From NCBI GenBank assembly GCA_034231615.1, contig CM067298.1, positions 55,518,883 through 55,582,882 on the forward strand: a stretch of 64,000 nt of DNA. Direction: 5' to 3'. This stretch comes from Meghimatium bilineatum (lineage: Eukaryota; Mollusca; Gastropoda; Stylommatophora; Philomycidae). The notes under the pieces were generated by a model. That model ran no database searches. It was not told where the DNA came from and was given only the letters and a program-made list of their open reading frames with translations. Below, piece by piece: positions 4,082-64,000 of this stretch. A program made the translations under genes and the position numbers. Position 1 is the first letter of the stretch, and every line of letters begins with the position of its first letter.

Positions 4082-4444
4082 TTATCTGTTAGTTAATAAG
4101 TTAGTCGTTGGATCATCGTCATTGCACTCTGGACAAGTCCATAGGTGATCAGATATTTCCTTGAGTGTATCCGCTATTACACGTTGACTGACGGTCCCCG
4201 TACGTCGTTGATTGACCATCATTCTTTCTCGCCCACGTTTCAAACCAAGCTCCTTTATTCTAATCATGGAACAATAATCATCGTCACGTGTACAGTCATT
4301 TGTTCGTACGTTTTCCCGTAGGGCATTCAAAATGTCAGCCCGATCCATCGCTCCACCAACAGCCGTAGTAGCATCGTGGGCGGACAACCTATCTGCTCTC
4401 TCATTACCCCGGACTCCCGCGTGTCCCGGCACAAAAATATCACT
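4082..4444 (-). pseudogene. I-like LINE, C-terminal RNase H end
   Basis: A 3' fragment of a LINE whose polyprotein ends in RNase H. On the minus strand the frame starts at DIFVPGHAGVRGNERADRL, the last RNase H block, with the conserved His and Asp. It runs to HLWTCPECNDD, a Cys-containing tail also found as HLWECPACCD in the large I-like element at 34512-36973. The first three RNase H motifs and the RT are missing: the similarity starts abruptly near 4444 and a stop lies just upstream. This is a 5'-truncated insertion, not a gene. Assignment to the I/Nimb group rests on the RNase H plus the CxxC tail. Confidence 0.85.
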
Positions 4445-5213
4445 TATCTATCGGAGGCCAATGGCGAGTATACTTGATCCTCTTATATACATACATATAC
4501 GCCTACATGTATTCACAATAAGTTGTTACTCCTTAGACATGCGCAGTAATTATCGTTAACTGAAGAAGTAAACGTATCACAAGCAACAACGAGTTGATCA
4601 ATGCTAGCATGCGTATATGTCAATTAGTGCGCAAACCAACCATATTACATGTATTTAATAATTGTTATACTTATGATAGAACACTACTGTCTGAGATAAA
4701 ATGTGTAGTACAGTGCATTGATATAGTCTGCTGACGTGTTTGATTTCTACAGACGGTAGATAATAGCATTACCAATATCCGAAATGTGCATATGGGCAAC
4801 ATTGTTTTACATATTTGAAAGAATACGGCTTTGCATATCTCAAAGAACATATTGAATGACGATTTAATCAAATAAACGTTATCAAGTACATGACAAAGGA
4901 TAATTGCGTGAGGACCACGAACACAAAATAACTACTCATGTAATGGTGAATATAGTGAGTTTAGAAATTCATGACAACTGGAACAAATTATAATAACACT
5001 ATTGAACCGATTTCGACGAAAATGTATATATAAAATGTACCTTATAAAAACGTTGCGATTATGAAATTGTGCATAATAATCGTGTTAGAAGCACAAGCTA
5101 TGTATTGTACATTGAAATACAATTAACCTCAACTAGATACTTTTCATATATTCTGGGAAATTAAAGATGGCGACCGTGATGCCGATCACATTATCCATAA
5201 GTATGCCGTTCAT
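4445..5213. other. No gene recognised
   Basis: AT-rich sequence with no long ORF, no clear repeat landmark and no domain I recognise. Confidence 0.4.
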
Positions 5214-12871: not shown

Positions 12872-14352
12872 TTGGCAAATTAGGATACCTAAGGAACATC
12901 ATAAAAACATGGAAATCTCCAGAATGTGATAATGTAACTGCTGAAATAGTCCAGGCAGAATGAGAAATCACCATATATTACACACGCTGCACCAAGATTT
13001 GGAAAAGTGAAGTGTGGCCCAATGAATGGGCACGATAAGTCTACATAACGTTACTGATGATGGGAAATTTAACACTGTGCAGCAACTACAGAATCATTGC
13101 ACTCATTAGTCACCGTAACAAATACTAATTACTATCATCATGAAAAAGACTACAGCATAAGCTGAAAGAACAGTTAAGGGAAGCATCAAATGTAGCACCG
13201 GCAGGTTTTCGACAGGGCAGAGGCCATAGAGACCATATTTTCAATACGGGGAACACCACTGAGAAATGCAGAGTTTAATGTCGACATGTACACATGTTTT
13301 ATTGACTACACTAAAGCATTCGATTGTTTACAACATCACACAATTTGAAATACCATGGAGTACATGGGTTTCCCGCTACATCTAATCAGCGTCATAAAAA
13401 CATTATATCAAGACCAGCATTCAGCCGTGATAGTAAATAGTGAAGCATCTGATTGGTCCAGCGTGGAAAAAGGAGTCAGACAAGGATGTGTCCTATTTCC
13501 AGGTCTATTCAACATTTATGCATAATGTAATAATGAGGAATGAGGGACATAATGAGGAATGTAATAAATGACCAGCAGAGAAATAGCTTCGACCCACTCG
13601 ACATAGGAGATACCACAGCTAAGATATGCTGGTGATACAACATTATTGGTACAGTGAAGCAAGTGTCGAACACCTCATAAACTCCATTAAAGAACATAGT
13701 GAAAAACAAAACCCATTTCTGAACGGAAACAAGATCAAGATTATAACAAGCGACAAAAACACTAGCAAGTTATCAACATATCAACACTAGCGGATTAGAA
13801 AGTCATCAGTTTTGAATACCCTGTTCTCTTATCAATAGTAACGGTTATTGCTATGACGAAAATCAGGAGTGAAAGAAGCTGATACAAATGGACAAACATA
13901 TGGTTGAGCAACTGCAAAATAACAAAACTAACATTCCTAAGAGCTTGCATATTCCCAGTGGCAATATATGGGTGTGCATCCTGAACAATCACCAACAAAG
14001 ATAAAAAAAAAGAATAGCAACATTTGAAACAACATGGGCCACAAAGATCACCAATGTAGCCATCCTGAGAGAAAATAATGTAATTGAAAACTGGCTAAAC
14101 AGCATGTTTCTTTCCAGAGTACTACAATATTTTGGTCTTAGTATACGCTATAACATCCTAGATAAGAGCATACTAGAGGGGATGATGTCAGGGTGACGAA
14201 CAAGAATCGGACCACAAAGAAAATGGTAGACGCAAGGCATCAAAGACCACCTGAATATGACAGTAACAGGAAGACTATTCATGATCGACAGAAGTTTCGA
14301 AAGCTGTTATTACTCCTACATCATGTTCAGGATATGCTAACTGATGATGAAG
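12872..14352 (+). pseudogene. RTE-B LINE, RT to C-terminus, heavily mutated
   Basis: Collinear with 37690-39170. Readable pieces in order: AGFRQGRG, the RT fingers motif; CFIDYTKAFDCLQH (motif A with the catalytic Asp); VEKGVRQGCV (motif B); RYAGDTT at about 13622, where the catalytic YADD has become YAGD; the thumb region; and a C-terminus ending near SCSGYAN with TGATGATGA at 14342-14350. Many stops and frameshifts interrupt it. The 5' end, including the endonuclease, is missing. No RT activity is expected. Confidence 0.85.
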
Positions 14353-16195
14353 GAACATCAACCTGGACAGATGGCTAGAGCAGTGACTGTTTTAGCCATC
14401 TGTCCTTATATGACTTGATAAAACGGAACTATCCCTCCGTGACTGGAAAACCGGAACTCAAAGTCAGTGTCACAATGAAATTTTGTGGATTCAATACAAC
14501 AATAGTAGCCGTTTTTGTTTATCAGTGCGGATTTTTTTTAACAATCCGAACAAGTAAAGATGAAAAATACAAGAACTGTCGCATCGTATACACACGATTG
14601 TCTTTCCGTATTTTTTATGTATGGGTAAATATTTTATTAGTCGAAACGTTGAAATGGGGTGGTTTGTCCTTTTGCATGCATCAAATTTACCAACTTCAGA
14701 CAGCCAAATAACCGACCAGCTATATCACAGTGTTACTGCAGTGTTAGATTACTTTCAAGTCTATTCCACGCAGGCGCATTTGAGTGGAGGAAAGAATAGT
14801 AGCTCTGTGACTTACTGCGAAGGCCATAGGATACACCTAACGAACGCTGGCAGTAGGACTCATTATTCAGTTAGTTTAATGAGTTTAGAAAAAAAATTAT
14901 AATTCAACAAACGGAATTTGATCCTGGTCGGCCCAGATGGCACATGCTCGCCTCACAACTTGAGTTAAAACGTATTCTGTATTCGACCACACCGGATCCC
15001 CAAAAACGATGTGATTTTAGTCAAGACTTGCAAAGTATATATTCACAAGCTACTATGAATATGGACGGGTCGATAGACACATAGATAACAACACACACAC
15101 TGCACGGGTACGTAAATTCATCAAGAGCCACATAAATAACACATACGCATAAACAAGCTTGCTTCAAAGCGACACGGGCAAATGCATAATATAACGTAGT
15201 ATCATTGAGAATTGGTATTGTTATAGAAAAAAATCAGATATTATGTCGTGAATTATATATTATTGTTATTCGACTTGAGCATGGGTTCTGATAATGTGGT
15301 GCAAAAATAGAATACTGAAGTCAGTGCTGTCGGGACTATAGTGTAATTATAACACCAAAGCTGTAATCTAGGAACCATGAATGTCAATCTTCGGACTGTA
15401 TCCTGAATACCCGCAAATGTTTGAGAACACAGAAGAATAAATATAAGATGGTTTTTGCCAGGATTTACTCAGCAGCGAATAACGATATCACCGCCACGAA
15501 ATACAATTAATGGGTAACCTCTTTTGAGATTTCTCGCTGAGAAGAAATTTTTTAAATTTATTCTCAACATTTGGAAATTCAGTTCTGAGATTTCAGAAGA
15601 TTACTAAGACATTTGCTTTTTTTAAAGAGCAGCGCAGACATCTATTTGTGTAACCTTCTTATTCCTGAAATATTTGTACAATACTCAGAGGAGCAAAACA
15701 ATATTTTATACATGCCTTTCAGCCGAAACGTCGATTAGGTGTAAATTTTGGTGAACTGTAACACTGAGTCATTGTCGTAATTTTATTTTCATTTTTCGCG
15801 TTATGTCAGTGGTTTTCAGTCGAGTGTACCCTATGAGTTAATTGTATTTACGTTGCTCCCTCTAGAGTTATAGTTGGCGCAGTACTGATATGAGAACAAT
15901 TTTGATTTTATTTTACCAAGCTGTCCTATAGTCATACTAAAAAAATTAGTTGCTTGATCTGTATAATCAAGGGGCATTATTTGAAATGTTATTCTATTCT
16001 ATTTTTCCCTAATTAATTTCAGCGAGTTATCTTTCTTTGGCAGACTCTGAGAAGTTCGTACCCCACATCTGCTGAATTGTCAGATGTGTGTTGGTCGTCC
16101 TTGTGGCGCACAATTTCCGATTGGAGAACCACATGGATCAGGTTGAAAACCTGTACAACCTGTAAACAATACATACATGATACTGCAGTTTCAAC
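14353..16195. other. No gene recognised
   Basis: Frames at 14415-14711 and 14621-14902 match no known family. The motif CCGAAACGTCGAT occurs at 15723, but without the rest of a hammerhead core. Otherwise AT-rich and featureless. Confidence 0.4.
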
Positions 16196-16199
16196 TATA

Positions 16200-16990
16200 T
16201 ACCATCAGCAGGATATACATTACATATAGTAGACAAGTTACCAAAATCCCAGACATCAACTAATAAACACGTTAGATTATAGTGGTAAGTTACCAAAACC
16301 ACTGATAAGAACTAAATAGCACGTTCGATAATGGTTGCGAATAACCAAAATCACACACTCAAATTATTAACACATTATATAATAGTTGTGAATTCAGAAC
16401 ACATTGACGATAACTAATACAAATGTTAGATAACAGTAGTGAATGACCAAACCACTGTCAAACTGATAAAACATTGGATATTAACAGCGATTTACCAAAT
16501 CCACTGACTGCAACTAAAATACATTAGATAATAGTGGTGAACAATCACAACCAGGGACAATGACTAAAGCACGTAAGATAATAGTAATGAGTTACCAAAC
16601 CCACTAAAAATAACTAAGAAACCACGTTAAATAATATTTATGAATGACTAACACCAGTAACACACGTTAATAACACGTTATATAATAGTGCTAAATGACC
16701 AAAACCACTAACACACGTTAATAACACGTTATATAATAGTGATAAATGACCAAAACCACTGACACACGTTAATAACACGTTATATAATAGTGATAAATGA
16801 CCAAAACCACTGACACACGTTAATAACATGTTAAATAATAGTGATGAATGATAATAGCCACTGCCATGAACTACAGAGCAAAGTAGATAATAATAATAAT
16901 GAATGATCAAAACAACTGACAGAACTGAATAACGCGTTAAATAATATGGTAAATGACCAAGATCACGGACAGTGACTAAGAGTCGCAACT
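16200..16990. repeat. Satellite array, 51-bp unit
   Basis: Three near-identical adjacent units (about 16665-16820) repeat GTTAATAACACGTTATATAA, then GTGATAAATGACC, then CACTGACACAC, with a 51-bp period. Diverged units extend on both sides. Because 51 is a multiple of three, a 116-residue minus-strand frame with a 17-residue repeat stays open; I regard it as a by-product. Confidence 0.9.
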
Positions 16991-29244: not shown

Positions 29245-29344
29245 NNNNNNNNNNNNNNNNNNNNNNNNNNNNNNNNNNNNNNNNNNNNNNNNNNNNNNNN
29301 NNNNNNNNNNNNNNNNNNNNNNNNNNNNNNNNNNNNNNNNNNNN
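29245..29344. other. Assembly gap, 100 N
   Basis: Exactly 100 undetermined bases, the conventional size for a scaffold gap of unknown length. The two ORFs that run through it are artefacts. Confidence 0.99.
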
Positions 29345-34299: not shown

Positions 34300-34511
34300 C
34301 CGTTCATTAATGTCTTTAAGTTGTTATCACAAATGTCCGTACATACTGCTGCAGAATGAATATGAAATATAAATACACTTCAATTTCTGCATAGAAAACG
34401 TATTGACAATCATGAACGCTCTATTCTAACAACATCCTAGAACAGTGTTCACGTGGACATCACAAGATGGCAAGACAAAATATCAAATAGATTACATCTT
34501 AATTTATCACA
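34300..34511 (+). pseudogene. RTE-B endonuclease, 5' part of a split copy
   Basis: From about 34373 the frame reads FNFCIENVLTIMNALF, one stop, then QHPRTVFTWTSQDGKTKYQ and IDYILI. This is the C-terminal half of an APE-type endonuclease, including the TWTS.DG and QIDYI motifs. The text stops at 34511. Its continuation, HHRWRSIIPCAKT and DTDYELI, is found 2.46 kb further on at 36980, because the I-like element has inserted between the two. Confidence 0.85.
34499..34511 (+). repeat. Left target-site duplication of the I-like LINE
   Basis: TTAATTTATCACA. The right copy at 36974-36986 is TTAATTCATCACA, one mismatch in 13. The right copy keeps the RTE-B codons CTT-ATT-CAT-CAC-like reading better, so the mismatch probably arose on the left after insertion. 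Confidence 0.85.
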
Positions 34512-34530
34512 TGTGTACATAGGTCAATGA

Positions 34531-35424
34531 AGCGGAGAACAATCGAAACCCAGTACAGGCGTGAGGGACGACACAGGGCAGACATCGATATCAGATGATA
34601 TGAAAGGTAGAGCTTTCTTTGATAGATATCTTCAACAAACTAATCAGGGTGACTTAGATCAGCGCAAAGAAATGCTGCATATCCTGACATCCATCACAGA
34701 TTTTAGGGCCAAAGAAGACCAGCTTGTAGATGTTAAAGAAGTGCAACTGGCTATTAAGAATGCATCCGATGGCGCTCAAGGTCCGGATGGAATCAGGTAC
34801 AGCTTACTCAAGGACATTGGGGAGAATATGCTACCTAAAATAACAGACGATTATAATACGAGTCTGAAAACAGGAGTAGTACCAGAGGAGTGGCTACATA
34901 GCTATCTTATACCCGTTCCAAAACCAGGCAAAGATCCTACAGACATAAAAGGTTATCGCATCATCACACTGCAGAATGTGTACGCTAAGATTCTGGAACG
35001 AAATGTGGCTAGACGCATAACCAGGGAACTAGAGATAAAAGGCGTTCTCCCAAATAACCTAGGTGCATACAGACATAGACAAGACACAGTCACAAATGCA
35101 GCAGTTCTTGCATATGAAGTTTTTCAGAACAAAGAAGAATCTGCAGTTGCAGCGATAGACCTGGAAGATGCATACAATAGAGTTAGCTACACCCATCTCA
35201 TCGACATGCTAAGGGAACAAGATATCCACCCCTGGATCATACGCTGGATAGCAAATGTGCTAATCTGTAGAAAAGTCGCTCTGAGTTGTGGATCCTGGAC
35301 GTCTGAGATCAGAACAATAGCACCTGGTATGCCACCAGGATCTCATCTGTCCCCAGTACTGTTTAATGTGTATACAATGAGAATTGCTCAACTGCAAACT
35401 CCCAGCAATTGTGTAGAGTTTTAA
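34531..35424 (+). pseudogene. I-like LINE RT, N-terminal part (fingers and palm)
   Basis: The frame is open from 34531. RT blocks: GAQGPDGIRYSLLK (fingers), WLHSYLIPVPKPGKD, GYRIITLQNVYAKILE, AAIDLEDAYNRV (motif A, catalytic Asp), APGMPPGSHLSPVLFNVYT (motif B). The usual RPI of block 2 reads RII. It stops at 35424, where a one-base shift moves the reading into the next frame, which overlaps by 16 bases. This is a frameshift, not a programmed overlap, since the YADD motif must follow directly. Confidence 0.9.
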
Positions 35425-36494
35425 CATACGCTGACGATATCCTACTATACAACATGGGCAGGAACAGAACAGATATCGTTGACAGTGTACAAATTGGACT
35501 AGATCAATTGTCGATATGGTGCAGAACATACAACGCTGTGATCAATCCCTCGAAAGCAAAGGTGGTCTGGTACTCCTTAAATAATAATCTGGTCAATGAC
35601 ACACTGCCAGCTGTTAGTTGCATGGGCTCATTCATTGAAAGAGAACAGTACCTTAAATATCTTGGGATAATCTTTGATAGAAGTCTGTCATTCAACAAGC
35701 ACGTCACAAATATGATTCAGAGGGCTAGAAGAGGGATCAGTGTTATCAAGGCTATGGCGACCTTCGACATGCAGCAATGGTTACTTTTTCTGCTTCTGCA
35801 AGTGGTGGTGCTATCTGTAATAGATTATGGCCTCGACCTACTAACTTTGTCACAGACACAAGTCGATAGACTGGAAAAAGTTCCAAATGAGGCAATGAGA
35901 ACAGTACTGGGGTGTACTAGAGATACACCCATCTCTACTATGAGATTTCTGTTTGATCTCCCCAGCATTAGAGTGCGACATCAGGTAGCACAAGTTAAGT
36001 TGTACCTTAAAGTGACAGAATACAACCACCACCCATTACACCATCGTCTAGATGAGTCAAAGGGAAAACGAATCAAGCGTGGCAGATCATGGATGGCAGA
36101 GGCTGAAGACACACTGCGAATAGTATGTGAATTGGAAGAGATAGGAAAGGGCAGTGAATGGGTGGAGGTAGACACTGAGAAGAAATCACTGACTAAAGTA
36201 ATAATACAACTAGATAAAGCATGTCGAAAATGGACGGTAGTCAGGGCTCAAGATACAGTGCAAGAACTCGCCCAACTACACTCGAAACCACAAGACATAA
36301 TTATATACACAGATGGCTCTGTTAGCAGAAACACAAATAAAAGCGGTTACGGTTTTGTTGCCTACAGAAATGGCGTGAAGTTGGTTGAGAAATCTTCAGC
36401 ATATTCTACTGTCACATCGAGCATGAGGATGGAGATAGAGGGAGTTACAGCAGCTCTTAATTGGTTGATAACTGATACATCAACACAAGGGTAA
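35409..36494 (+). pseudogene. I-like LINE RT palm/thumb and RNase H N-terminal part
   Basis: Continues the RT with VLTYADDILLY (YADD at 35427-35438, intact), INPSKAKVVW, YLKYLGIIFD, the thumb (VIDYGLDLL, RTVLGCTRDTP) and a linker. RNase H starts near IIIYTDGSVSRNTNKSGYGF (catalytic Asp at 36312), then SSMRMEIEGVTAAL (Glu). The frame ends at 36494 by a second one-base shift just before the third RNase H motif. The start codon given is only where the frame becomes readable; there is no real start here. Confidence 0.9.
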
Positions 36495-36958
36495 TACTCA
36501 CAAACTCTCAAAGCATGTTACGCAAGATAGAAAAGTTCATTCTAAGAAAAGAATGGTGGGACTTATTGAACAACTCAGTTGTCCAGAGCAGTACATGGAT
36601 ATACTGCCCTGGTCATGCCGGGGTCAGAGGAAACGAGAGAGCCGACTTACTGGCAGGCAATGCGACGATAGACGGCACATTTCTGAGAAGAGATAAAGCA
36701 GATTTAATAAAGGTAGTAATAAATTCATTTCAAGATGCAGATGATATCAATGAGGTTGAGAACGTACAAGTACAGAGGATGTTAGAAATGGGAGTATTCA
36801 GAGGTGAGGGGAGGAAAAGTAAATTTTTTGGAAAGTCCCGAAGATCACACAATCAACACCTGACCGGAACTATGAGTCTACATACACTGGGATGGCTGCT
36901 GGAGCGGAGTGCGGAGCACTTATGGGAATGCCCTGCGTGCTGTGACGCCAGTTTCTAA
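36488..36958 (+). pseudogene. I-like LINE RNase H C-terminal part and CxxC tail
   Basis: After the frameshift, VILTNSQSMLRKIEKF continues the RNase H; the expected catalytic Asp of the TDSQSM motif is Asn (AAC at 36503-36505). Then WIYCPGHAGVRGNERADLLA with the final His/Asp block, a helical region, and HLWECPACCDASF to a stop at 36958. Homologous to 4082-4444. The Asn substitution should abolish RNase H activity, independent of the frameshifts. Confidence 0.9.
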
Positions 36959-36973
36959 TCAAGAATCAAGAAG

Positions 36974-36986
36974 TTAATTCATCACA
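36974..36986 (+). repeat. Right target-site duplication of the I-like LINE
   Basis: TTAATTCATCACA, pairing with 34499-34511. It lies directly after the AATCAAG-repeat tail of the I-like element. Confidence 0.85.
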
Positions 36987-39175
36987 GATGGAGATCGATC
37001 ATTCCATGCGCCAAGACCCTTAAGAGTGCCGACTGTGACACAGATTACGAACTTATCATGGTGTATGTACAAATAAATCTTAAACGGGTTATAAAAGTTG
37101 CTAGCACCATTCGCTTTGACACCAGCAACATACCAGCAGAGTATAGCATTGACGTTCACAACAAATGTTAAATACTTCTGTTAGTACAAGAAGAATTAAC
37201 ACCCGATGACCTAGTAAACTATGCGAAATATATTCCTGTTTCTACAGCACATAATCGTATATCCGCTAAAAGTTACCAAGAAAAGGAACCTACATTTCAG
37301 AAGAAACTTTCAAACTAATTGAAGAAGACAAATGAAAACATTGAATGTAATTGCAAATCACAGAAAAACAAAGAAATAACCAAAACAATAAGGACTAATA
37401 CAAATTAGGACAAAAACAAATATTTACTGGAGACCTGTACCAAGATAGAGAAGATGTACAAACAAAGAAAAATATAAAGTATGTTCAAAGAGATGAACAT
37501 TCTAACAGGCGACTTCAATCCAGCACTAAACATTATTCAAGACAAAAACATGGCAACAAATTGACAGAAAACACATGTATCCTGGAAAGATGGAAAGAAT
37601 ACTGCAAGGAAGAATATGAGGAAAGCCACAGAAACATGAAAAATAACACCCCAAATAACAGTGAAATAGAACCAGAACCCAGTTTAGATGAAGTCGGATA
37701 GGCCATTAAAAAGTGAGAGGGAAATCTCTAGTGTGTGATAATGTAACGGTTAAAGTTATCCAGGCAGGAGGAGAAACCACCATCACCATCTATCACACAC
37801 TCTGCACCAAGATAGGGAAATGTGAAGTTCGGTCAAAGGAATGGACACGATCATTCTACATACTGCTACCGAAGAAGGGAAATCTAATACTATACACCAA
37901 CTACAGAGCCGTTGCACTGGTCAGTCACACCAGCAAAATACTACTTCGCATCATCATGAAAAGACTACATCGTAAGCTGGAAGAAGAGTTAAATGAAGCA
38001 CATGCCAGCTTCAGACAGAGCAGAGGCACCAGCGATTATATTTTCAATATGCAAAACATCATAGAGAAATGCAGATAGTTTAATGTCGATATCTACACGT
38101 GCTTTATTCACTACACCAAAGCATTCGATTGTGTACAACATCAAAAACTTTGCAATATCATGATGGACATGGGTTTTCCGCTACACCTAATCATCCTCAT
38201 AAAAATATTATACGAGGTCCAGTAAGCAGCTGTGAGAGTAAATAATGAAACATATGATTGGTTCAGAGTTCAAAAAGGAGTCAGCCAAGGATGTGTCATA
38301 TCACCATATCTCTTCAACGGTTATGTAGAGAACATAATGAGAGATGTAAAAAATGACCAGGAGAGAAAAAACTTCGACCCACTCAACATCGGACGTCACG
38401 AGATACCAAAACTAAGATATGTTTGTGATACAACAGTATTCGCACACAGTCAAGCAAGTGTCCAAAACCTCATAAATTCCATTAAAGAACATAGAGAAAA
38501 ACAAAACCTATTTCTGAATGAAAACAAGACCAAGTTTATGACAAGTAACAAAACGACTAGCAAGTTCTCAATCAGTATCAACAACAGAGAAGTAGAAACT
38601 CACAAGTTTTGAATACCTTGGTTCTCTTACCAACAGAAAAAGTGATTGATATGCAGAACTCAGAAGGAGGTTGACTATCGCCCCAAAGAAGCTGATACAA
38701 ATGAAAAACATATGCCTAAGTTGCTGCAAAACAACATAACTAACATTCCTAAGAGCATGCACAGTCCCAGTGGCAATATATGGCTGTAAATCATGAACAA
38801 TCACCAACAGAGTGAAAAATAAAATAGCATTTGAAACCAAATGTTACAGAATTATTCACAGAATACCATGGACTAAAATAAAGATCACCAATGTAGCCAA
38901 CCTGAGTTAAACAACAGTGTTCTTTTCCAGAAAACTACAATATTTTTGCCATACCAAACGCCATGACAGCCAAGAGAAGGCCATAATGGACAGGATGATG
39001 CCAGGAGGACGAACAAGAGGCAGACTAAGAAGAAAATGGACGCAAGACACTAAAGACCAAATGAACATGACAGTCACAGAAGCAGGAAGACCGGCTCAAG
39101 AAGGACAGAAGTTTCGAAAGGCTGTGATGACTGCTATATCCTGTTCAGAATATGCTACCTGATAATGATGACACT
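36974..39175 (+). pseudogene. RTE-B LINE, endonuclease end to 3' tail
   Basis: Resumes the split RTE-B copy. In order: HHRWRSIIPCAKT and CDTDYELI (end of endonuclease), RFDTSNIPAEYSIDV, EELTPDDLVNYAKYI, a linker with MFKEMNILTGDFNP and LERWKEYCKEEYEES, EPSLDEV, then RT: IIMKRLHRKLEEELNEA, SFRQSRGTSDYIF, CFIHYTKAFDCVQ (motif A, Asp read as His), VQKGVSQGCVISPYLFN (motif B), LRYVCDTTVF (YADD changed to YVCD at 38418-38429). The C-terminus is YFCHTKRHDSQEK, GRTRGRLRRKWTQD, TEAGRPAQ and AVMTAISCSEYAT. Tail TGATAATGATGA. Stops and shifts are frequent; RT is dead. Confidence 0.9.
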
Positions 39176-39395
39176 TCAAAAGAAATTTCAAGTCACTAAT
39201 TGGTAGAATGGATAAGTCATGATTCCAGTACCTTAACCTCAAGAGAGAGGCTGGCAATTACTTGCATTGATTAAATTGTCGCAAACTATTACAGACTACA
39301 AGTCCACATAGTTGGTGTGTACTGACGCGAGAAAATCCCTATTGAATTGTTTGCATGTAGATAGATTGTCACTGAACAAACTTGGGGATTCGGGT

Positions 39396-39859: not shown

Positions 39860-40625
39860 ATTCTCTGCAAAATTTCTTATGGAGAAAATGTATGTTTATC
39901 TCACATAATTGAAAGTTTCCTCTGAAGTAAATACATGTTTATCTCACATAATTGAAAGTTTCTTATGAAATAAATGTATGTTTATCTCACATAATTGAAA
40001 GTTCCCTCTGAAGTAAATATATGTTATGTTATGTTTATCTCACATAATTCAGTTTCCTATAAAACAATGTATGTTTATCTCACTAATTGAAAGTTTCCTA
40101 TGAAATAAATGCATGTTTATCTCACATAATTAAAAGTTTCCTATGAAATAAATGTATGTTTATCTCACATAATTAAGTTTCCTATAGGAAATGAATGTTT
40201 ATCTCTCAGGATTGAAAGTTTCCGATAGGAAATGAATGTTTATCTCTCAGGATTGAAAGTTTCCCCTGAAGTAAATGTATGTTTATCGTACATAATTGAA
40301 AGTTTTCTATGAAATAAATGTATGTTTATCTCACATAATCAAAAGTGTCCTAGAGAAAATGAATGTTTATCTCTCAGGATTAAAAGTTTTCCCTGAAGTA
40401 AATGTATATTTATCACAGAATTGAAAGTTTTCTCTGAAGTCCGTACATGTTTATCTCTCAGGATTGAATGTTTCTCTAAATGTATATTTATCTCACATAA
40501 TTAAAAGTTTCCTCTAAGTAAATGTAGGTTTATCTCACATAATTAAAAGTTTCCTCTGGGGTAAATATATATTTATCTCAAAAGGCTGAAAGCTTTCTAT
40601 AAGTAAATGTATGTTTATCTGGTAG
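39860..40625. repeat. Satellite array, ~43-bp unit
   Basis: About 17 imperfect units of the form TGTATGTTTATCTCACATAA, TTGAAAGTTTCC, then TATGAAATAAA or TCTGAAGTAAA. A subset reads ATCTCTCAGGATTGAAAG instead, a second subtype interspersed at 40200-40460. No coding significance. Confidence 0.92.
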
Positions 40626-63708: not shown

Positions 63709-64000
63709 CATGTCTACACCTCATCAACATTGTGTGTATGCTTACATGTCTACACCTCATCAACATTGTGTGTATGCTTACATGTCTACACCTCATCAAC
63801 ATTGTGTGTATGCTTACATGTCTACACCTCATCAACATTGTGTGTATGCTTACATGTCTACACCTCATCAACATTGTGTGTATGCTTACATGTCTACACC
63901 TCATAACATTGTGTTTATGCTTACATGTCTACACCTCATCAACATTGTGTTTATGCTTACATGTCTACACCTCATCAACATTGTGTGTATGCTTACATGT
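63709..64000. repeat. Satellite array, 36-bp unit, runs off the window
   Basis: About eight units of GTCTACACCTCATCAACATT plus GTGTGTATGCTTACAT. Period 36 keeps reading frames open on both strands (63692-63906), giving 12-residue protein repeats that are not genes. One unit lacks TC (near 63902), and two adjacent units have GTGTTTATG instead of GTGTGTATG. The array begins at the edge of the ZF-LINE copy. Confidence 0.95.

What the first reader, a model, noticed from the sequence alone, without database searches (positions are those of the whole stretch)
34300..39175. An I-like LINE inserted into an RTE-B LINE, with the target duplication still visible
The endonuclease frame ends at IDYILI (34511) and its exact continuation HHRWRSII begins after 36974. 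Between them lies a 2462-bp RT plus RNase H element flanked by TTAATTTATCACA and TTAATTCATCACA (12 of 13 identical). Removing the insert and one duplicate restores the codons CAA-ATA-GAT-TAC-ATC and ATT-CAT-CAC of the host LINE. This gives a firm relative age: RTE-B older, I-like younger.
Basis: partly seen in the sequence, partly recalled or inferred. Interest (0 to 1): 0.75.

Follow-up and report, generated by a model that had tools for sequence, protein, structure and literature searches.

The report
A LINE nested inside another LINE
A younger jumping gene of the LINE type has landed inside an older, decayed LINE of a different family and left the usual short duplication of the target; it is a clean but ordinary example of nested transposons.

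Summary
(1) Seven of seven sibling loci of the outer LINE that were cut (of 39 listed) run through the site without the insert; one has a 250-aa frame reading NQIDYILIQHRWQSS across it. (2) Insert siblings share its 3' end, and 38 of 39 begin matching at 34516, four bases after the left duplication; 27 of 29 loci continue upstream, so this copy is 5'-truncated. (3) The insert differs from its siblings' majority at 74 of 2455 sites (3.0%), the host at 99 of 830 and 25 of 270 (11.3% together): the RTE copy is older, the RNase H LINE younger. I also found the host's own 9-bp duplication (34375-34383, 39171-39179), giving host limits 34384-39170. The host is RTE/BovB-like; the insert has the EN-RT-RNase H build of the I superfamily; exact clades were not testable. 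Mildly unusual: the insert family's frame runs to 7-25 nt from its 3' end.

The parts
34375..34383 (+). left copy of the outer (host RTE) target-site duplication, ACACTTCAA
   Evidence: exact 9-mer at both ends of the host element; exact 9-mers at spacings 4600-4989 occur 30 times in 3,292,408 sampled pairs; most sibling matches begin at 34383-34384
34384..34511 (+). 5' piece of the older, 5'-truncated RTE/BovB-like LINE (end of endonuclease domain), including the left inner TSD
   Evidence: 39 sibling matches at 82-88%; four of seven siblings share about 0.9-1.05 kb further upstream and a fifth about 0.55 kb
34499..34511 (+). left copy of the inner target-site duplication, TTAATTTATCACA
   Evidence: the 7th base is C in 6 of 7 empty-site siblings and in the right copy, so the T here is probably a change after insertion
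34512..34515 (+). 4 nt (TGTG) between the TSD and the insert that match neither element; probable filler at the 5' junction
   Evidence: 38 of 39 siblings of the 5' probe begin matching at 34516; the family reads AAAC here
34516..36973 (+). younger LINE insert, 5'-truncated (endonuclease lost), with RT and RNase H
34915..35672 (+). reverse transcriptase domain of the insert, in two frames
   Evidence: PF00078 in ORFs 34531-35424 and 35367-36494
36291..36664 (+). RNase H domain of the insert, in two frames
   Evidence: PF00075 in ORFs 35367-36494 and 36476-36958
36956..36973 (+). stop codon (36956-36958) and 15-nt 3' tail TCAAGAATCAAGAAG of the insert
   Evidence: same kind of stop and tail in siblings
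36974..36986 (+). right copy of the inner target-site duplication, TTAATTCATCACA
   Evidence: identical 13-mer at the empty site of L007
36974..39170 (+). 3' piece of the older RTE/BovB-like LINE (end of endonuclease, RT, 3' end with TGATAATGATG tail)
   Evidence: PF00078 in ORFs 37710-38078 and 38226-38612 (the first below Pfam's cut-off); siblings
39171..39179 (+). right copy of the outer target-site duplication, ACACTTCAA
   Evidence: sibling 3' ends stop after a TGATGATG-like tail

Best explanation
An RTE/BovB-like LINE copy inserted first, 5'-truncated within its endonuclease region, making a 9-bp duplication, and then decayed. Later a LINE of a different family (EN-RT-RNase H) inserted into the remnant of that endonuclease frame. 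Its endonuclease nicked the site, its RNA was copied from the 3' end at the nick (target-primed reverse transcription), copying stopped before the endonuclease region, and second-strand joining left 4 filler nucleotides and a 13-bp duplication. Point mutations, including one in the left duplication, have accumulated since. Shown: both duplications, the 5' truncations, the common 3' end, the empty site in siblings and the divergence order. Inferred from established LINE biology: the nicking and reverse-transcription steps.
For: Duplications of 13 bp (12/13) and 9 bp (9/9) at the two pairs of ends. Empty site in 7 of 7 sibling loci cut, of 39 siblings listed, one of them in an open frame. In the 120 listed of 458 homologous proteins of the host endonuclease an IDY-type motif is present in 120, and in 112 a loose pattern for the following R-containing motif follows directly. 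Insert siblings: 39 others from the 3' probe (95-97% identity) and 39 from the 5' probe (95-96%), with a common 3' end and variable 5' ends. 14 of 23 sibling loci tested (of 29) carry an exact 10-16 bp repeat near their ends with shuffle p of at most 0.02. Divergence 3.0% versus 11.3%.
Against: 9 of 23 insert siblings tested showed no convincing duplication, and in a tenth (L024) the scored 12-bp repeat is not at the 3' end, though a shorter 10-bp one is visible there in the printed flanks. Siblings were those scoring best against the window copy, so absolute divergences are biased low, and only 7 and 11 host siblings were used. At the 3' end the host copy's 9.3% lies within its siblings' own range (3.9-10.0%), and the insert's 3.0% is near the top of its siblings' range (0.6-3.2%). 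The TGTG filler is not explained by sequence. Clade names are not proven.
Confidence: 0.97

Rival explanations
1. The two RTE pieces are unrelated RTE fragments that happen to flank an insert, or the insert arose with RTE flanks as one composite element.
For: RTE-type DNA is very common here: a loose first look gave 46,034 candidates for one RT piece, 150 of which were scored, and another copy lies at 12911-14361 in the same window.
Against: The two pieces continue each other in siblings and one exact 9-bp duplication encloses both. No match to the window's host copy at E of 1e-5 or better was found in the 58 insert-sibling loci examined (flanks of at most 1.5 kb).
Confidence: 0.01
2. Assembly artefact: two loci joined at the insert borders.
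For: The genome is rich in young near-identical copies, which can confuse assembly.
Against: Both joins fall exactly at a target duplication and at the family's own 3' end. The only N run in the window is at 29245-29344. The window insert carries many differences of its own (74 of 2455), so it is not a collapsed repeat.
Confidence: 0.02
3. The reverse order: the RNase H LINE is the older one and the RTE DNA came later.
For: None found.
Against: The insert interrupts a frame that siblings keep whole, and it is 3.0% diverged against 11.3% for the host.
Confidence: 0.005

Closest known systems
RTE clade LINEs (RTE/BovB type)
   Same: Endonuclease (PF14529, in a sibling) and RT (PF00078), no RNase H found, a short repeated 3' tail, 5' truncation. 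The endonuclease matches proteins named 'craniofacial development protein 2-like' in several animals; that this name usually marks BovB/RTE endonuclease is recalled. SR3, an RTE of Schistosoma, has 10-12 bp duplications, and RTE elements usually have a short 3' UTR ending in short repeats (PMC1291365, passages).
   Different: The host copy is decayed and truncated and an intact single ORF was not seen. Its tail is a TGA-type triplet repeat, whereas the paper describes A-rich tetramers or pentamers. The sub-clade ('RTE-B') was not tested.
I superfamily LINEs (I, Nimb, Ingi)
   Same: Endonuclease, RT and RNase H in siblings. The locust Nimb element Limi has the same three domains (PMC3391268, passages), and Nimb and Ingi are, apart from one unknown clade, the I-superfamily clades reported in molluscs (PMC10294476, passages). 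A snail protein (Bradybaena similaris, P0036) is 51% identical over 67% of the query.
   Different: No labelled I, Nimb or Ingi reference was available to place it. An ORF1 like Limi's was not found in the stretch read upstream. Limi ends in poly-A; this family ends in TCAAGAA-type repeats 7-25 nt after the stop codon.

Membership tests
RTE/BovB-like LINE (outer element) | APE-type endonuclease and RT | tested here: met
   PF14529 in sibling L003; PF00078 in window 37710-38078 (below cut-off) and 38226-38612
RTE/BovB-like LINE (outer element) | no RNase H domain | tested here: met
   no RNase H family in the four ORFs downstream of the insert given to Pfam (36959-37171, 37710-38078, 38226-38612, 38911-39162); broken frames between them were not read
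RTE/BovB-like LINE (outer element) | short 3' end with short tandem repeats | tested here: met
   TGATAATGATG in the window and TGATGATG-like tails in most of 11 siblings read
RTE/BovB-like LINE (outer element) | single ORF | tested here: inconclusive
   no intact sibling read; the longest open frame listed (538 aa) was mostly a tandem repeat
RTE sub-clade 'RTE-B' | RT phylogeny with labelled references | not testable with these tools
   no labelled reference set held
I superfamily LINE (insert) | endonuclease, RT and RNase H | tested here: met
   PF14529 and PF00078 in sibling L046, PF00078 and PF00075 in sibling L054; RT and RNase H in the window
I superfamily LINE (insert) | separate ORF1 with zinc knuckles | tested here: inconclusive
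   shared sequence upstream reaches about 1.65 kb beyond the window's truncation point in two of four siblings; a 193-aa open frame there (L082) matches no Pfam family; the true 5' end was not reached with certainty
I versus Nimb versus Ingi clade | RT phylogeny with labelled references | not testable with these tools
   of 120 listed homologues (203 found) 12 carry a name and none names I, Nimb or Ingi
Target-primed LINE insertion | target-site duplication, common 3' end, variable 5' truncation | tested here: met
   duplications in 14 of 23 sibling loci tested

The most novel reading that the evidence does not exclude
The insert belongs to a young and numerous LINE family whose coding frame runs to 7-25 nt from the 3' end. 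The RNA signal its reverse transcriptase recognises must then lie inside the coding sequence for the RNase H and final Cys-His region, overlapping protein and template constraints.
Probability: 0.4. Interest if true: 0.3.

Novelty: new member of a known kind. Interest (0 to 1): 0.15.

Why it matters
It is a textbook nested insertion with two duplications, an empty site and two divergence estimates, so it gives a firm order for these two LINE copies. It does not change any view of how LINEs work. The near-absent 3' untranslated region of the younger family may deserve a look by people who study template recognition.

Tried and rejected
Site-specific insertion into this RTE: rejected, since no match to the host copy was found in the 58 insert-sibling loci examined and the 3' flanks of the 29 read there differ. 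L037, which matched through the duplication to query position 587, looked like a second insertion at the same site; its flank is different. Using the longest open frame among RTE hits to classify the host: the 538-aa frame is mostly a tandem repeat. Placing the insert among I, Nimb and Ingi: left open for lack of labelled references. The repeat finder with its default seed did not list the 13-bp pair, because the mismatch leaves only 6-base exact runs. A second sibling search from the host just right of the insert did not complete and was dropped. Paper searches; listings only, except the four papers cited, of which passages were seen.
Full report
Sequence check. The window holds TTAATTTATCACA at 34499-34511 and TTAATTCATCACA at 36974-36986. 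Pairs of 13-mers that agree at 12 or more positions at a spacing of 2300-2649 bp occur 16 times in 3,064,575 sampled pairs of the window. The outer frame reads ...VFTWTSQDGKTKYQIDYILIYH up to the break and ...HHRWRSIIPCAKTLKSADCDTDYEL after it. Between them lie ORFs with RT and RNase H domains. The insert's own reading is broken: RT and RNase H are each split over two frames, and the second piece of each scores slightly below Pfam's cut-off.

Empty site. The window's own genome (G000, 1,612,235,226 bases, 32 contigs) could be searched. Window 34300-34511 gave 39 matches besides the window itself, 82-88% identical, all starting at query position 83 or later, that is, at window 34382 or later; 221 candidates were found and 40 scored. 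Loci were cut for 7 of these 39. In 7 of 7 the homology runs across the junction with no insert, in L008 as two overlapping pieces of which the first covers the junction. One of them, L003, has a 250-aa open frame reading KNQIDYILIQHRWQSS across the site. Among the 120 listed homologous proteins (of 458 found) of that frame, all 120 hold an IDY-type motif, and 112 fit a loose pattern for the R-containing motif directly after it. At the one position where the two duplicates differ, 6 of 7 empty sites have C, as in the right copy, so the left copy probably mutated after insertion.

Insert boundaries. A probe from the 3' end (36400-36986) listed 39 siblings at 95-97% identity out of 4177 first-look candidates, only 40 of which were scored. 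37 of 39 end at window 36968-36975, one at 36977 and one at 36986. The last is L037, whose flank differs. A probe from the 5' end (34499-35100) listed 39 siblings at 95-96% out of 1511 candidates, 40 scored; 38 begin at 34516 and one at 34518. In 27 of the 29 loci cut there the family continues at least 15 bases upstream, with graded 5' ends; L049 and L060 are truncated almost at the same place as the window copy. So the window copy is 5'-truncated, and TGTG at 34512-34515 belongs to neither element. Upstream stretches of four siblings share sequence to about 1.36-1.65 kb beyond 34516 (to 1.65 kb in L082 and L084), including the start of an endonuclease, so the family is at least about 4.1 kb long. 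A 193-aa open frame in that upstream part matches no Pfam family. Of 29 loci from the 3' probe, the 23 with a visible 5' end were tested for duplications. 14 have an exact direct repeat of 10-16 bp with shuffle p of at most 0.02 (200 shuffles each); in one of these, L024, the scored repeat lies away from the 3' end, but a 10-bp repeat at the end is visible. 9 show none. No match to the window's host copy was found at E of 1e-5 or better in 58 sibling loci, with flanks of at most 1.5 kb, and in 29 of 29 the 40 bases after the tail match the window's flank at only 12-18 positions. Two pairs of these loci (L022/L057 and L032/L046) are parts of one element each by their coordinates, so 58 loci are 56 elements. 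This answers the second refutation test and speaks against site specificity for this RTE.

Outer element. Most sibling matches start at 34383-34384. Four of the seven siblings (L003, L004, L007, L008) share about 0.9-1.05 kb more upstream and L006 about 0.55 kb plus more beyond a gap, while L002 and L005 share under 90 bp. So the host copy is itself 5'-truncated. Sibling 3' ends stop after a TGATGATG-like tail; the window has TGATAATGATG ending at 39170. ACACTTCAA lies at 34375-34383 and again at 39171-39179. Exact 9-mers at spacings 4600-4989 occur 30 times in 3,292,408 sampled pairs.

Ages. Against the majority of siblings, column by column, the window insert differs at 74 of 2455 positions (3.0%, s.e. 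0.35; 2458 positions in all). Its sibling loci have a median of 1.5% (range 0.6-3.2%). The host copy differs at 99 of 830 positions near the site (7 siblings, range 5.2-9.9%; 1542 positions in all) and at 25 of 270 at the 3' end (11 siblings, range 3.9-10.0%; 311 positions in all), 11.9% and 9.3%. Positions with too few siblings, no majority base or a gap as majority were dropped. All siblings were chosen as best matches, so the absolute values are low estimates, but the order is clear. One mismatch in a 13-bp duplication fits about 3% divergence per copy (inference: 0.8 mismatches expected).

Naming. The insert family has endonuclease, RT and RNase H, the build of the I superfamily. The locust Nimb element Limi has the same domains (PMC3391268, passages), and Nimb and Ingi are, apart from one unknown clade, the I-superfamily clades reported in molluscs (PMC10294476, passages). 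Of 203 homologues 120 were listed: 49 are 35-52% identical and 68 of the other 71 are 21-29%. Twelve of the 120 carry a name; one of the closer group is a snail protein. None names I, Nimb or Ingi, so these stay unresolved. The host endonuclease matches 'craniofacial development protein 2-like' proteins; that this name usually marks BovB/RTE endonuclease is recalled, not tested. 'RTE-B' was not testable.

A small oddity. In the window the stop codon (36956-36958) is followed by 15 nt of tail, TCAAGAATCAAGAAG. All 29 siblings read keep this stop and the start of the tail, with 7-25 nt of tail after the stop. In 28 of 29 the frame that reaches the stop ends in ASF or ASL; L027 is the exception. 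That frame is open for 3 to 609 codons upstream, because many copies carry stops or shifts. The family therefore has almost no 3' untranslated region. Whether that is unusual for its clade was not tested.

Verdict. Confirmed, well explained, ordinary.

Noticed in passing
window 12911-14361 (+): Second copy of an RTE element related to the host (75% identical over 1505 aligned bases).
   Followed up: partly
window 4118-4438 (-): Fragment 34% identical in protein to the RNase H end of the insert, so probably another LINE with RNase H.
   Followed up: no
window 39869-40620: About 18 diverged copies of a 43-bp repeat starting about 690 bp after the host RTE.
   Followed up: no
window 63709-64000: 36-bp tandem repeat, 8 copies, 98% matches, running to the window's end.
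   Followed up: no
window 16623-16971: Tandem repeat reported with periods of 51, 102 and 153 bp.
   Followed up: no
window 29245-29344: Run of exactly 100 N, probably an assembly gap or a withheld stretch.
   Followed up: no
L042, L045, L053, L057, L063: Insert-family siblings with different internal deletions of about 95-840 bp relative to the window copy.
   Followed up: no
L085:1-1090: Tandem repeat open in three listed frames next to an RTE RT fragment; it inflates the open-frame length reported by the genome search.
   Followed up: partly
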